26,645 bases of DNA from a virus: positions 1 through 26,645 of the IMG/VR virus record IMGVR_UViG_3300028608_000067; one strand, given 5' to 3'. A model generated the notes under the pieces. It saw only the letters and a program-made list of their open reading frames with translations. It had not been told where the DNA came from and searched no databases. A program made the translations under genes and the position numbers. Positions 22,142 through 26,645 of the stretch are shown in pieces (position 1 is the stretch's first letter; each line of letters opens with the position of its first letter).

Positions 22142-22167
22142 AAGCCCGCCATGTGCGGGCTTTTTTT
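22142..22167 (+). terminator. Intrinsic terminator before the tailspike gene
   Basis: Perfect 8-bp stem AAGCCCGC (22142-22149) / GCGGGCTT (22155-22162), loop CATGT, followed by a run of seven T. The core CCCGCCAxGTGCGGG is nearly the same as in the terminator at 2850. It separates the ejection genes from the tailspike. Confidence 0.88.
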
Positions 22168-22192
22168 CGTCCGTAGAAAAGGAGTCACACAA

Positions 22193-24637
22193 GTGACCGT
22201 CAACACGATAAATAGCATCGCCGAGTTCGATACGAACGGGGTGACTACCAACTTTCCCTTCTTCTTCAAGTTCTTGGCGAATGAAGATTTGGTCGTCACT
22301 TACATCGATCCGCTAGGGACAACGATTCCGCTGGCTTTGGGGACGCAGTACACGGTCAACGGCGCTGGCACGGATTCAGGAGGCAGCATTGTCACCACTA
22401 CCGCGCTGGCGGGGCCTGGACAGTTGGTCGTGTCCCGGGAGATGGAGCCATTTCAACAAACCTCGCTGAGAAACCAGGGCAAGTTCCTCGCTGAAACCCA
22501 TGAGGATGTGTTCGACAGGCTGACAATGCTGATTCAGCAGAGCTTCGCAACTGACTCCAGGGCGCTGAAGCGGCCGTTCGGTAAAAGCAATTTCTACGCG
22601 GAAAACCGCCGTATTACTGATCTGGCCAACCCTGTTGATACTCAGGACGCGACCACAAGGATTTGGGTCGAAAACCATTTCGCCGATCTGATCGATCAGG
22701 TTTCCGGCGTAATCAACACCACGACCGGCATCATTTACGACGCCGGCACGCTGTTTGACCATCTGCGTTTCGGCGTGAACAGGACGGTCGACAGCATAGC
22801 TGCATTGCGCCTTCTCTCGGCGGCACGAAACCAGAGGGCGTTCGTCCTTGGCTACTATGCAAAAGGGGATGGCGGGGGCGGTGCTTACTTCATTGATCCT
22901 ACCGACACAACCACTGCCGATAACGGCGGTACCGTGATCGTTGCAGCCGACGGCAGTCGCTGGAAGCTGGCCTATACCGGCCGCGTGTCCATTGACCAGT
23001 TCGGAGCCAAGCGCAACAACCTGGGGACTGATGCACCATTCAACGACGCCGCAATCCAGAATGCTTTCGACTCTGGCATTCCACTAATGGCTGGAGACGG
23101 CACATACCAGCTGAGCTTGAGTCGTACCATCACCCTGGAGGCTGGTGCAACCGTCTGCTCGCTGTTCATGCGTAGCGGCCTGAACATCCACGGAATGGGC
23201 ATGGGGCACACAAAGTTCAAAATCCGCGACAACGAATCAACTGACGCATCGCCGAAGTTCTTCAACATGATCGCCGGCAACCAGGTCTACGATTACGGGC
23301 ACATTGAAGGAATCTCTTTCGACCTCAACGGCCAGAACAACAAGATCAGCCCGAACCGAGGTACAGGCGTTTACAGGCCATACAACTGTGCAGCGCTGAT
23401 GATTTCCGGCAGCGTGGCAACAGGCGGCTTTGACGCGCGGCTGAACAACTTCAAGTTCTTAAATAATGAGGTGATCAACTCTCCAGGCGTAACCTGTATC
23501 GCACTCGGGCAGCGTTACGGCCACCCAGGCATCAGCGGCTATAACATCGAGATCGCCGGCAACCGTTTCTACAACAACGGCATCGACGCTGGCGATCACT
23601 CAAGCATTTTCTGCTATGCCAATGGCGTAAACGTTCACCACAACGACTTCGACCACCCTACACCAAGCACCGGCACCCAAGGGCCTGTCGTTGCATTTGA
23701 GCTGCACGGCTCAAGCATGAACGCCTGTGACAACACAGTTCGCAACTACTGCCAAGTTGCCTGGATCTCAGAGGGCGAGGATGGCGTACGCGACAAAATT
23801 ATTGTTTGCCGAAACAAAGGAACCGTGAACTTCTTCGGTATTGCTCTGTTCGGCCTGGCCGGTGAGAACGACGGTCTTTCTGATGTAATCATTGATGACA
23901 ACGTTATTGTCATCACGTCAAACCCGATTAATAACCCAACTATCTCGACACTACATCGAGCTGGCCTGTACCTGGGTGTGGCAGTGGGGTTTGTGCTGCG
24001 CATAAGCGCTAGGGGCAATAAGCTTTATTGCACCGACCGGACAAAGAACGCCGGAATCATCCTGACAACCAGCGCTGGCGTGGTAATTCAGGATGCGTTC
24101 ATTGAAGGCAACACTATCTCAGGCTTCAGTCGTGGGATTTGGGCGGGGGCTGGTGGCACCGGTCAGCTCGCCAACTTGATGCTTGCGAACAACCTGATCG
24201 CAAACTGCGCAATCACCACGGAGCTACCAGCGGCAACATTTGGCATCGAAGTCGGTGGCGCTAACTTTAGCGTGCATGTTGTAGGCAACAAAGTTGGGTC
24301 GGGCGACACCGGGTCACCACCTGCCACCGGGATTAGACTTATCGGCACGGCTGACAACCTGCACATGGAAGGCAACAACCTGACCACGTCTGCGTCAGGG
24401 ATAACGTCCACGATTGTGGTCAGCGGGTTCCGTACAGGTCGCCAAGCGCTGACGTTCAGCGCGCTTCCCGCCCAATCAACTTGGGCAGCCGGGAACATCG
24501 CCTATATCGCATCGCCTCCTGTCTTGGGCACAACTCCTAACAAGTATGCCGTTGAGGGCTGGCTGCGACTAACCAACGGCACGGGCAACGTCCTGAACAC
24601 CGACTGGGTAGAGCGCCGCACCCTCACTGGGACTTGA
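22193..24637 (+). CDS. Tailspike protein, beta-helix receptor-binding/depolymerase type
   Basis: An 814-residue protein with a GTG start at 22193, eight bases after AAGGAG; the in-frame codons upstream run through the terminator and are discarded. The N-terminal domain (about 1-115) is the particle-binding part shared by many podoviral spikes (FDTNGVTTNFPFFFKFLAN, then QGKFLAETHEDVFDRLTMLI). A linker with GYYAKGDGGGGAYFIDP (220-236) and ADGSRWKL leads to FGAKRNN, the usual entry to a pectate-lyase-like right-handed beta-helix (about 265-760) made of repeats such as IEIAGNRFYNNGID, VIIDDNVIVITSNP and AFIEGNTISGFSRG. The C-terminus (KYAVEGWLRLTNGTG) is a short beta cap. Such spikes bind, and often cut, surface polysaccharide. 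Catalytic residues cannot be assigned. The adjacent acyltransferase suggests an O-antigen receptor. Confidence 0.87.
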   Translation: MTVNTINSIAEFDTNGVTTNFPFFFKFLANEDLVVTYIDPLGTTIPLALGTQYTVNGAGTDSGGSIVTTTALAGPGQLVVSREMEPFQQTSLRNQGKFLAETHEDVFDRLTMLIQQSFATDSRALKRPFGKSNFYAENRRITDLANPVDTQDATTRIWVENHFADLIDQVSGVINTTTGIIYDAGTLFDHLRFGVNRTVDSIAALRLLSAARNQRAFVLGYYAKGDGGGGAYFIDPTDTTTADNGGTVIVAADGSRWKLAYTGRVSIDQFGAKRNNLGTDAPFNDAAIQNAFDSGIPLMAGDGTYQLSLSRTITLEAGATVCSLFMRSGLNIHGMGMGHTKFKIRDNESTDASPKFFNMIAGNQVYDYGHIEGISFDLNGQNNKISPNRGTGVYRPYNCAALMISGSVATGGFDARLNNFKFLNNEVINSPGVTCIALGQRYGHPGISGYNIEIAGNRFYNNGIDAGDHSSIFCYANGVNVHHNDFDHPTPSTGTQGPVVAFELHGSSMNACDNTVRNYCQVAWISEGEDGVRDKIIVCRNKGTVNFFGIALFGLAGENDGLSDVIIDDNVIVITSNPINNPTISTLHRAGLYLGVAVGFVLRISARGNKLYCTDRTKNAGIILTTSAGVVIQDAFIEGNTISGFSRGIWAGAGGTGQLANLMLANNLIANCAITTELPAATFGIEVGGANFSVHVVGNKVGSGDTGSPPATGIRLIGTADNLHMEGNNLTTSASGITSTIVVSGFRTGRQALTFSALPAQSTWAAGNIAYIASPPVLGTTPNKYAVEGWLRLTNGTGNVLNTDWVERRTLTGT

Positions 24638-24658: not shown

Positions 24659-24684
24659 CCAGTCCTGAGAAGCTTCAGGGCTGG
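24659..24684. terminator. Hairpin between convergent tailspike and acyltransferase genes
   Basis: CCAGTCCTGA (24659-24668) pairs with TCAGGGCTGG (24675-24684), 10 bp with one wobble, loop GAAGCT. It sits where the plus-strand tailspike and minus-strand acyltransferase genes converge and could act in both directions. No strong T tract follows on either strand, so terminator function is doubtful. Confidence 0.35.
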
Positions 24685-25832
24685 CTGGCCTTTGCATTCA
24701 CGATAGACGGACCTTCCACTGCAATTAGTTTTTTGCCTAGGAACTTGCCTGCATTATGGGTAGGTGACTCGATCAGAAGATGCAGTACCCAGGCAAGACC
24801 GGTGCTAATAATTGTCTGAATGGCGAGAGCTGCGTAAGGATTGATACTCAAGGTCAGCATGTACGCCATGCCGCTGTAGCCGAGTGGGGCGTGACAGGCA
24901 TAGAGTGGAAAACTGATCTTCGCGTAAAACCTAATGACCGGACCGCCGCTCCAGTTCCTGGCGAAAAAGTACATGAGGGCGAATGCGAGAAGAGTTGCAC
25001 CATAGGAGGTAGGGACCGCTCCATACATATGCTGAACTTTTGCCACGATCACAAAAGTCGTGAACATTCCAGACACAACAGCAAGCATCAGCTTCGTGCT
25101 CAGGATTCCTCTGAGGTGATAGTTAAATACGATGCCGATGCTCATGTACAAGATATATGGTAGCGCCCACAGATAATTTGTTGAGGTCACTAAAGCGCCT
25201 AGTGTTCCCTCATAAGAGGCTTTTTCAGGTGCCGCCACCAATGCGGCTATACAGATAATCGCTATCGGATAAAGCCTTCCCTTGCTGATCGCCGACCAGA
25301 AAAGCAGGACGAACAAATAGAACTTCGCTTCGGTCTCTAACGTCCAGACGACACCGTCAATCTGAGCCTCACCCATCCAATCTCTGAACAGACTCATGTT
25401 GGCAAAGATTCTCGGCCAAGGCTGATAGAAGGCAGCAGAATTCACCTGAGTATTCAGCCATAGGGCATAAACGGAAATCAAAAGCCCAATGGCATACGTA
25501 GGCCAGATTCTAAAGATACGGCCAATAACAAACGCGACTCTGCCGATCTTCGCATTTGCGAGTGAGGCAACAGAATTAGGTATGACCAATCCACTAACTA
25601 AGAAGAAAAGCGCGACGGCGATTTGGCCAAAGTTGAAATTTCTCATTATTGGAGAGTTGAGAAATTCATTGACTCCATGGAATGGGTATTGATTGATAGG
25701 AGGAAAGCTGCCGTATTGTCCCTTAAGATAATTAAAAACAAATACGTAATGGCCAAATAAAACAAGCAGTACGGCAATGCCGCGCAAAGAGTTGGCAAAC
25801 TCTATTTTTGAAGTTGGCTTGATGATGCTCAT
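24675..25832 (-). CDS. Membrane acyltransferase family 3, probable O-antigen O-acetyltransferase
   Basis: A 385-residue inner-membrane protein with about ten hydrophobic segments, of the acyltransferase-3 (OafA/Oac-like) family, which moves acetyl groups onto sugars of lipopolysaccharide or related glycans. Landmarks: SLRGIAVLLVLFGHYVF (15-31) with R17 and H28 as expected functional residues, FFLVSG (76-81), RIFRIWP (105-111) and WTLETEAKFYL (163-173), the family's W-S/T-L-x-x-E-x-x-FY-L block. Sampled segments are about 35-52% GC against 60-68% in the head/tail genes, and the strand is opposite to the late operon. Both are signs of a separately acquired lysogenic-conversion gene. The start ATG has only a weak ribosome binding site; a possible promoter box with palindromes lies 40-85 bases upstream. 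Confidence 0.9.
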   Translation of the reverse strand: MSIIKPTSKIEFANSLRGIAVLLVLFGHYVFVFNYLKGQYGSFPPINQYPFHGVNEFLNSPIMRNFNFGQIAVALFFLVSGLVIPNSVASLANAKIGRVAFVIGRIFRIWPTYAIGLLISVYALWLNTQVNSAAFYQPWPRIFANMSLFRDWMGEAQIDGVVWTLETEAKFYLFVLLFWSAISKGRLYPIAIICIAALVAAPEKASYEGTLGALVTSTNYLWALPYILYMSIGIVFNYHLRGILSTKLMLAVVSGMFTTFVIVAKVQHMYGAVPTSYGATLLAFALMYFFARNWSGGPVIRFYAKISFPLYACHAPLGYSGMAYMLTLSINPYAALAIQTIISTGLAWVLHLLIESPTHNAGKFLGKKLIAVEGPSIVNAKASQP

Positions 25833-25869
25833 TATTATCGTCCATAAATTCTTCGGCCACTTTGCCGTT

Positions 25870-25915
25870 ATTCCGCGCGCGGAATTTTATACGCTGTGCC
25901 TGTAATCGCACAGCG
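25870..25915 (-). promoter_or_regulatory. Possible acyltransferase promoter/operator flanked by two palindromes
   Basis: On the minus strand a TATAAA box (25891-25886) upstream of the acyltransferase is bordered on one side by a perfect 16-bp palindrome ATTCCGCGCGCGGAAT (25870-25885). On the other side is an 8-bp hyphenated inverted repeat CGCTGTGC (25892-25899) / GCACAGCG (25908-25915) with an 8-base spacer. No convincing -35 box was found. The layout suggests a protein-controlled promoter, but binding is not shown. Confidence 0.4.
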
Positions 25916-26109
25916 ACGTTGTTGCCAAACGTTAGATTTTTTCGAAATGGAGCAAGCCGCCGATCACCAAGCAGCAGTTCTGCAGATCCTCCCAACCGCC
26001 CGCAGCACGCCGTTCAGCGATACGACTGGCTGTGGTTGCGGACCAGGCTATTGCCCAGGGAGTGACCTGCAAACAGACTTACGAAGGAATTGGCACTAGA
26101 GCTATCGAA
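25916..26109. other. Segment without a recognised gene
   Basis: Between the acyltransferase control region and the 52-residue membrane gene no frame has a good ribosome binding site or recognisable product. A plus-strand frame (GTG 25896 or ATG 25947 region, stop at 26097-26099) contains the pieces LQILPTARS and DTTGCGCGPGYC, and another plus frame reads ADQAIAQGVTCKQTYEGIG. These look faintly protein-like, and the stretch may be the remains of a broken phage gene. GC content here is higher than in the neighbouring acyltransferase gene. Confidence 0.4.
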
Positions 26110-26268
26110 TTACTTCAGAGCACCCAGGACGTACAGGGCAGTCATCACTATGGAAAAAACGACTACCACGATGCACAGCGTCTTGAAATCTTTCTTGAAA
26201 GGGACAGGAGATGGTGGATCGTTGAACATTGGGTCTGACGGAAATGACTTGGCTTTTTGATCTTTCAT
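26110..26268 (-). CDS. Small tail-anchored membrane protein, 52 aa
   Basis: The minus-strand ATG at 26268 has a strong GGAAGGA ribosome binding site. The product has a polar, Pro/Lys/Asp-rich N-terminal half (KSFPSDPMFNDPPSPVPFKKDFK) and one C-terminal hydrophobic segment (CIVVVVFSIVMTALYVLGAL, residues 32-51) that ends two residues before the stop. This predicts a tail-anchored protein with the N-terminus in the cytoplasm. It lies upstream of the acyltransferase on the same strand. No family recognised. Position beside an O-acetylase gene recalls the small membrane inhibitor Iap of Pseudomonas phage D3, but the sequences were not compared. The frame is too short for default gene-length cut-offs. 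Confidence 0.65.
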   Translation of the reverse strand: MKDQKAKSFPSDPMFNDPPSPVPFKKDFKTLCIVVVVFSIVMTALYVLGALK

Positions 26269-26543
26269 GGTCCTTCCAGGAGCAAAGCTCTATATCGTGA
26301 TCGTGTGATAATGGTATGCGATAAGCCGTGTCGTTGAAACGGGAAAGCTTCCATTGCAGGATAATGACGTTTGACGGCGGCCAGCGCGACGAGATGTGGT
26401 ATTGCGCTATGATCTATTTTCGGTGTCCGCTGTGGGCATATCATTACCCCCAGCAAGACTGAAAAAGTACATTGGTTAGTACATGTGTTGAGACTGTAGG
26501 GCGTGGTGCCCAGCAAACGTTGATGGAAACAGCTTTGATACGG
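26269..26543. other. Non-coding stretch between the last prophage gene and attR
   Basis: About 275 bases with many stops in all frames and about 45% GC in the block sampled. It should contain the promoter of the minus-strand 52-residue gene; a TATAGA-like box occurs about 20 bases upstream of that gene, but no convincing -35. It also holds the paired AGTACAT repeats at 26466-26484. A 33-codon plus frame (ATG near 26365) has no convincing support. Confidence 0.5.
26466..26484. repeat. Paired AGTACAT direct repeats, possible integrase arm sites
   Basis: AGTACAT occurs at 26466-26472 and again at 26478-26484, start-to-start distance 12 bases, about 60 bases inside the proposed attR core. Tyrosine integrases use short repeated arm-type sites at such distances. 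Function is inferred from position only. Confidence 0.35.
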
Positions 26544-26561
26544 TTCCTGTCTCGGGCACCA
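26544..26561 (+). other. attR: tRNA 3'-end core sequence (right prophage boundary)
   Basis: TTCCTGTCTCGGGCACCA reads as the end of a tRNA gene: the last T-loop bases, T-stem strand CCTGT, acceptor strand CTCGGGC, discriminator A and encoded CCA. No tRNA body precedes it, so it is a fragment. This is what integration of a phage into the 3' end of a tRNA gene leaves at the far end of the prophage. The predicted intact tRNA would start GCCCGAG, which suits a leucine tRNA, but identity is inferred. The exact ends of the core are uncertain. Confidence 0.72.
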
Positions 26562-26645
26562 GTGACACTCTGTTTTCAGATGATCCCGAATGGTTCTGAA
26601 GGCCAGACAACCGCGCTTCATACGGTTTTTTGCGTCAGAGAGATC
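26562..26645. other. Probable host chromosome flank, with terminator-like hairpin
   Basis: If 26544-26561 is attR, these last bases are host DNA that originally followed the tRNA gene. AACCG (26609-26613) / CGGTT (26623-26627) with a 9-base loop and following T run (to 26631) would fit the tRNA transcript's terminator, though the stem is short. No gene is visible in the remainder. Confidence 0.5.

What the first reader, a model, noticed from the sequence alone, without database searches (positions are those of the whole stretch)
26110..26268. Undetected 52-residue tail-anchored protein upstream of an O-acyltransferase: possible Iap-like polymerase inhibitor
The frame has a strong ribosome binding site and a clean C-terminal membrane anchor and lies beside a predicted O-antigen acetylase. 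In Pseudomonas phage D3, serotype conversion uses a small membrane peptide (Iap) that blocks the host O-antigen polymerase together with an O-acetylase (Oac). The functional parallel here is inferred from gene neighbourhood and size. The polar Pro-rich cytoplasmic half is unlike a 31-residue Iap, so it may be a new type of small conversion or exclusion protein.
Basis: partly seen in the sequence, partly recalled or inferred. Interest (0 to 1): 0.6.

Follow-up and report, generated by a model that had tools for sequence, protein, structure and literature searches.

The report
New tail-anchored Pseudomonas prophage microprotein
A 52-residue gene that annotation would miss is real: it belongs to a small, previously unrecognised family of Pseudomonas prophage membrane proteins that share an exact eight-residue signature (DPMFNDPP), probably expressed in dormant prophages to change or protect the host cell, although what it does is not yet shown.

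Summary
Window 26110-26268 (-) encodes a 52-aa protein with one C-terminal membrane helix, and no shuffled version of the region gave such an ORF (0 of 1000). It is more than an orphan ORF. Four further proteins, in four other prophages from both podovirus-like and siphovirus-like genomes, share the invariant motif DPMFNDPP followed by a C-terminal helix. All nucleotide differences inside the motif fall at third codon positions. No Pfam, PHROG or NCBIfam family covers them. All five lie beside a lysis cassette, on the strand opposite the lysis genes, some also beside an attachment site: the classic place for a moron.

The Iap reading is not established. There is no sequence similarity to D3 Iap, and the conserved part is the N-terminal motif, not the helix. 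A true Iap homologue exists in a related phage (L045). In this window the ruin of an endolysin-Rz cassette separates the acyltransferase from the small gene, so their closeness is partly a deletion accident. Still, three of five members adjoin O-antigen genes (two acyltransferases, one polymerase), so a role in surface conversion or exclusion stays plausible.

Best reading: a lysogen-expressed, tail-anchored moron acting on a host inner-membrane target through its motif.

The parts
26110..26268 (-). 52-aa tail-anchored membrane microprotein (P0001), member of the DPMFNDPP family
   Evidence: ORF and translation; four homologues; 0/1000 shuffles; helix 24-47
26212..26235 (-). codons for the invariant motif DPMFNDPP (residues 12-19)
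   Evidence: identical in five proteins; only third-position nucleotide changes
26122..26178 (-). predicted transmembrane helix (residues 31-49)
   Evidence: hydropathy 2.71 over 19 residues; AlphaFold2 helix 24-47
26271..26277 (-). ribosome-binding site GGAAGGA, 2 nt from the ATG
   Evidence: read from sequence
24675..25832 (-). 385-aa acyltransferase 3 family protein, putative O-antigen O-acetyltransferase, downstream on the same strand
   Evidence: PF01757 E 1.9e-22; phrog_3333 E 1.1e-28
25959..26007 (+). remnant of the 5' end of an endolysin gene, 88% identical DNA to the endolysin start in L107
   Evidence: blastn
26026..26091 (+). remnant of the 3' end of an Rz gene (22 aa at 68% to L139/L112 Rz), ancestral convergent neighbour of the small gene
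   Evidence: tblastn E 3e-6, blastn 78% over 26026-26075
26466..26489 (+). tandem AGTACATTGGTT-like repeats close to the attachment site, possible integrase arm sites
   Evidence: inference
26544..26559 (+). putative attachment-site core TTCCTGTCTCGGGCAC, shared with L012, L002, L020 and (one mismatch) L043
   Evidence: att assignment inferred
26572..26615 (.). probable host chromosomal flank (93-95% identical to flanks in L012 and L002)
   Evidence: blastn
22151..24637 (+). tail spike (T7-tail-type N-terminus), last late gene before the cargo region
   Evidence: PF03906 E 6.5e-9; PHROG tail families

Best explanation
The gene is a prophage moron: a small accessory gene that sits at the edge of the lysis/attachment region, is read opposite to the late genes, and is probably expressed in the lysogen. 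Its product is a tail-anchored inner-membrane microprotein. The C-terminal helix holds it in the membrane, and the N-terminal 20-30 residues, probably on the cytoplasmic side, display the invariant motif DPMFNDPP. I infer that this motif binds and restrains a conserved host inner-membrane or membrane-associated protein, so that the lysogen excludes other phages or changes its envelope. Shown: the gene, its family, the motif, the predicted helix, the genomic slot and its presence in unrelated phages. Inferred: lysogenic expression, topology, target and exclusion function.
For: Five family members in five different Pseudomonas-type prophages, three podovirus-like (window, L111/L136, L112/L139) and two with siphovirus-type tail genes (L113/L142, L107), are 33-41% identical to the window protein yet share eight consecutive identical residues. 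Every member is beside an endolysin/Rz cassette (in the window, its remnant) and on the opposite strand to it. In the window the probable attachment core lies about 280 bp from the gene; in L136 a tmRNA 3' end lies about 200 bp away. L107 has hairpins on both sides. The conserved element is the soluble motif (100%) and not the helix (24%), as expected for a peptide that binds something and is merely anchored. In the window the adjacent lysis cassette is a ruin while the small gene is intact, so it is kept for its own sake. Net charge before the helix favours N-terminus inside in P0001, L112 and L136.
Against: No expression data. The consensus scan found no sigma-70-like promoter in the window region. 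Charge bias is weak or reversed in L107 and L113. The family is rare: one of 399 Pseudomonas genomes, three viral contigs, none in annotated phages or plasmids. No exclusion phenotype is known for any member.
Confidence: 0.5

Rival explanations
1. Iap-like polymerase inhibitor: the protein inserts in the inner membrane and blocks the host O-antigen polymerase Wzy (or its partner Wzz), while a neighbouring acetylase or phage polymerase remakes the O-antigen.
For: Three of five members adjoin O-antigen genes: window acyltransferase, L113 acyltransferase 48 bp upstream on the same strand, L107 O-antigen polymerase PF01901 E 2.8e-5. The L107 layout (tail fibre, polymerase, tiny membrane gene, endolysin) is close to that of D3. 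A true Iap homologue occupies the slot after the tail spike in related contig L045. Small membrane peptides that act on O-antigen length are established: Iap as a Wzz TM2 mimic (PMC12004945), OpvA of 34 aa (PMC4652898).
Against: No alignment to Iap. Helix not conserved, motif conserved, the reverse of the D3/L045 Iap pair. Similarity to Wzz TM1/TM2 no better than control helices, though Iap itself also fails that test, so it is uninformative. Two members have no O-antigen gene nearby. Large multi-pass membrane genes, many of them acyltransferases, occur in roughly a quarter of the related phage loci anyway, so 3 of 5 is not significant. A lysis-cassette ruin separates the two genes here.
Confidence: 0.2
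2. Accessory partner or regulator of the neighbouring acyltransferase or polymerase, for example stabilising it in the membrane.
For: Same strand and near the acyltransferase in the window; apparent tandem with an acyltransferase in L113.
Against: The two acyltransferases are only 22% identical, the third neighbour is a polymerase on the opposite strand, and two members stand alone. The closest relative of the window acyltransferase that was found (43%, L100) has no family member in the fetched 19 kb around it, L109.
Confidence: 0.1
3. Lysis-associated protein such as an antiholin or pinholin-like regulator, since all five lie at lysis cassettes.
For: Five of five members flank endolysin/Rz genes or their remnant.
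Against: Opposite strand to the lysis genes in every case. In the window a separate endolysin and Rz pair lies at about 3.3-4.7 kb, while the adjacent lysis genes are a ruin and the small gene is intact.
Confidence: 0.08
4. Chance ORF or non-coding conservation of the DNA.
For: Short, no annotation, no database family.
Against: Motif differences only at third positions in five diverged copies, open frames of 43-52 codons without stops, 0/1000 shuffles.
Confidence: 0.02

Closest known systems
Iap, inhibitor of alpha-polymerase, Pseudomonas phage D3
   Same: Tiny single-helix prophage protein in the cargo region between tail gene and attachment site, opposite strand to late genes, near an acetylase; the L107 relative also has a neighbouring polymerase
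   Different: 31 aa, no N-terminal domain, no sequence match; helix and C-terminus are the conserved part
OpvA of the Salmonella opvAB locus (34 aa)
   Same: Very small inner-membrane peptide, horizontally acquired, encoded with a partner that changes O-antigen and phage sensitivity (PMC4652898)
Lambda bor-type and HK97 gp15-type morons
   Same: Accessory gene at the late/lysis end of a prophage, independent of late genes; gp15 is a superinfection-exclusion protein (from general knowledge; the gp15 study is cited in PMC11436027)
   Different: No homology tested; Bor is a lipoprotein (general knowledge); the signature DPMFNDPP is not known to me from them

Membership tests
Iap (D3 alpha-polymerase inhibitor) | Sequence homology to D3 Iap | tested here: not met
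   BLASTP no alignment at E<=100; hhalign probability 0.6%
Iap (D3 alpha-polymerase inhibitor) | About 31-residue peptide consisting almost entirely of one helix | tested here: not met
   52 aa with a 23-30 residue polar N-terminal part that carries the invariant motif
Iap (D3 alpha-polymerase inhibitor) | Encoded with a phage O-antigen polymerase and acetylase | tested here: inconclusive
   Acetylase-type gene present in the window, no polymerase; across the family 2 acyltransferases, 1 polymerase, 2 none
Iap (D3 alpha-polymerase inhibitor) | Mimicry of Wzz TM2 | tested here: inconclusive
   Scores within the range of control helices; the positive control Iap also not distinguishable
Iap (D3 alpha-polymerase inhibitor) | Blocks host O-antigen polymerisation | not testable with these tools
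   Needs LPS gels
Prophage moron | Extra gene between late/lysis genes and attachment site, absent from most relatives | tested here: met
   No family member found in 62 related viral-contig loci; adjacent to putative att core
Prophage moron | Own promoter and terminator, expression in lysogen | tested here: inconclusive
   No consensus promoter in the window; hairpins flank the L107 gene (by eye); expression not tested
DPMFNDPP family (defined here) | 43-52 aa, invariant DPMFNDPP, conserved Lys before one C-terminal helix, beside a prophage lysis cassette | tested here: met
   Five members
Acyl_transf_3 (neighbour 24675-25832) | Pfam PF01757 above gathering score | tested here: met
   80.2 bits against cut-off 31

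The most novel reading that the evidence does not exclude
DPMFNDPP proteins are a new class of prophage effector: a short linear motif displayed on a disposable membrane anchor that docks on one conserved Pseudomonas inner-membrane protein and closes a phage entry route or reprograms O-antigen assembly, moving as a stand-alone cassette between unrelated phages.
Probability: 0.25. Interest if true: 0.65.

Novelty: new variant of a known kind. Interest (0 to 1): 0.42.

Why it matters
Small membrane proteins of prophages are easily missed by gene finders, and a few known ones (Iap, exclusion proteins) strongly affect which phages can infect a cell. This is a defined, previously unnamed family with an exact eight-residue signature, so it can be searched for, mutated and tested directly. 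If it blocks phage entry or changes O-antigen, it would be a compact tool for finding the host protein involved.

Tried and rejected
Protein searches of P0001 alone: no hit in annotated phages, plasmids, viral contigs or genome contigs; the family appeared only with a genus-wide search and a motif search. Relaxing the motif added only chance matches in unrelated frames. A profile search over 399 Pseudomonas, 288 Pseudomonadaceae and 145 further genomes, partly overlapping sets, added no members beyond G040. SecE, BNLF2a, Wzz and Methyltrans Pfam matches are all well below cut-off and look like generic helix or chance matches. The Wzz mimicry test was uninformative. Rfam found nothing in the window region. 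The tRNA finder found no complete tRNA at the putative att site, so its identity as a tRNA 3' end is a guess. The ORF 26265-26645 (-), which overlaps the start of the small gene, runs across the putative att site into probable host DNA and was rejected as a gene. A first chance test failed to count the real ORF because its ribosome-binding-site window was too narrow; it was corrected. The Taylor 2013 Iap paper is not held. No paper contains the motif as text.

Full report
Observation. The frame at 26110-26268 on the minus strand is present as described: 52 residues, ATG start, a ribosome-binding site GGAAGGA two bases upstream, and one C-terminal hydrophobic helix. In 1000 dinucleotide-preserving shuffles of the 715 bases around it, no ORF of comparable length, start signal and hydrophobicity occurred; the actual sequence has one, and it is the only such ORF in the whole window. 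AlphaFold2 on the family alignment gives one helix at residues 24-47 with a loosely ordered N-terminus.

Where it lies. The window is a virus record. It is a temperate podovirus of the epsilon15/Ab31 kind: its internal virion protein is 75% identical to that of Pseudomonas phage Ab31 and up to 92-96% identical in viral contigs; relatives lie in several Pseudomonas genomes. A tail spike ends at 24637. After it comes a cargo region that differs between relatives: here an acyltransferase on the minus strand, in L012 a 514-aa polytopic protein, in others acyltransferases or nothing recognisable. The region ends at a 16-base core, TTCCTGTCTCGGGCAC at 26544-26559, shared with L012, L002, L020 and, with one mismatch, L043. 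Just beyond it lies DNA 93-95% identical to the flanks of L012 and L002. I read the core as the attachment site and the rest as host DNA; this is inference.

A family. P0001 alone found nothing in annotated phages, plasmids, viral contigs or genome contigs. A search of 399 Pseudomonas genomes found one convincing relative, MEKYERDPMFNDPPEDQIPSKKATIIICIVLFIVSAAAYIANYN (E 6.7e-5). Searching viral contigs for the DNA that can encode DPMFNDPP found three more: in L113, L112 and L111/L136. The five proteins are 43-52 residues long; the other four are 33-41% identical to P0001. They share eight consecutive invariant residues DPMFNDPP, an invariant lysine before the helix, and a C-terminal helix with almost nothing after it. 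In the motif the nucleotide differences between copies are 0, 0 and up to 4 at codon positions 1, 2 and 3, the mark of selection on protein. A relaxed motif brought only frames without any resemblance outside the motif. No Pfam, PHROG or NCBIfam model matches with significance.

Neighbourhoods. All five lie beside lysis genes and on the opposite strand. L112: convergent with Rz, not far from an integrase-like gene. L111/L136: convergent with Rz, about 200 bases from the 3' end of a tmRNA gene. L107: between an O-antigen polymerase (PF01901, E 2.8e-5, just under the cut-off) and an endolysin, with hairpins on both sides. L113: 48 bases after an acyltransferase on the same strand, the pair inserted between two endolysin-like genes. 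Window: between the putative att core and the acyltransferase. Three of five thus adjoin an O-antigen gene. Large multi-pass membrane genes occur in about a quarter of the related phage loci, so three of five is suggestive but not significant. L112/L139 and L111/L136 have no such gene in the prophage parts read.

A ruin between the two genes. The 277 bases between the small gene and the acyltransferase contain, on the plus strand, the first ~50 bases of an endolysin gene (88% identical to L107) fused to the last 22 codons of an Rz gene (68% identical protein, E 3e-6). The ancestral order was therefore probably endolysin, Rz, convergent small gene, attachment site, as still seen in L112 and L136. 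By comparison with D3 and L107 the acyltransferase belongs to the slot between tail gene and lysis genes. Deletion of the lysis cassette has brought two cargo slots together. The phage has an endolysin and an Rz elsewhere (3.3-4.7 kb). This weakens the neighbourhood argument for a partnership in this window, and it also speaks against a lysis role, since the small gene has stayed intact while the lysis genes decayed.

Iap compared. D3 carries, between tail fibre and endolysin, iap (31 aa), an acetylase and a beta-polymerase. Iap is reported to mimic the second helix of Wzz and to compete for Wzy (review PMC12004945, citing Taylor 2013). P0001 does not align to Iap. In Iap what is conserved is the helix and C-terminus: a homologue that I found in L045, in the slot just after the tail spike, is 42% identical overall and 69% over the last 16 residues. 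In the DPMFNDPP family the helix is 24% identical and the soluble motif 100%. A direct test for Wzz-like helices was uninformative because Iap itself did not pass. So the family may act on the same pathway, but not as an Iap and probably not by helix mimicry.

Mechanism. The anatomy is that of an anchored peptide: a variable membrane tail and one fixed soluble motif. Charge bias favours the motif on the cytoplasmic side in three of five members. I commit to a moron that is expressed in the lysogen and whose motif binds a conserved host protein at the inner membrane, giving superinfection exclusion or envelope conversion (confidence 0.5). Polymerase or Wzz inhibition is the leading specific rival (0.2). 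Expression, topology, target and phenotype are all untested.

Novelty. Tiny prophage membrane proteins that alter phage sensitivity are a known kind; this family, its signature and its presence in unrelated phages are, as far as the libraries and papers searched here show, undescribed.

Noticed in passing
L045:16149-16244 (-): A 31-aa homologue of phage D3 Iap (MYRKILAQFMQVMYATAFMLVFILATYYQDI, 42% identical) lies 37 bases after the tail spike of an Ab31-like viral contig, so true Iap genes do occur in this phage group.
   Followed up: partly
L107:8594-9796 (+) (G040): A 400-aa O-antigen-polymerase-like protein (PF01901, just under cut-off, no PHROG match) between tail fibre and endolysin of a Pseudomonas prophage, a layout like the conversion region of phage D3.
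   Followed up: partly
window 25833-26109: Deletion scar: endolysin 5' end fused to Rz 3' end, showing that a second lysis cassette was once here although the phage has an endolysin and Rz at 3.3-4.7 kb.
   Followed up: yes
window about 25878-25917: Upstream of the acyltransferase, two palindromes, CGCTGTGC-N8-GCACAGCG and TTCCGCGCGCGGAA, flank a TATAAAAT box (read by eye; the repeat finder at minimum length 10 did not list them); possible operator of the conversion gene.
   Followed up: no
L012:14847-16391 and L069:14051-15595: The same 514-aa polytopic protein (identical N-terminus) in the cargo slot of related prophages, with no Pfam or PHROG match for the L012 copy; possibly a GtrC-like glycosyltransferase.
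   Followed up: partly
window 26544-26645 versus L012:16678-17411: In L012 and L002 about 690 bases, in L012 with a host-like gene, lie between the att core and the shared flank, whereas in the window the flank follows the core directly; different host strains or different integration histories.
   Followed up: no
L100:1336-2613 (+) (G056): The nearest relative found of the window acyltransferase (43% identical) lies in a Pseudomonas genome beside a possible tail-spike-like gene and has no DPMFNDPP gene nearby.
   Followed up: partly
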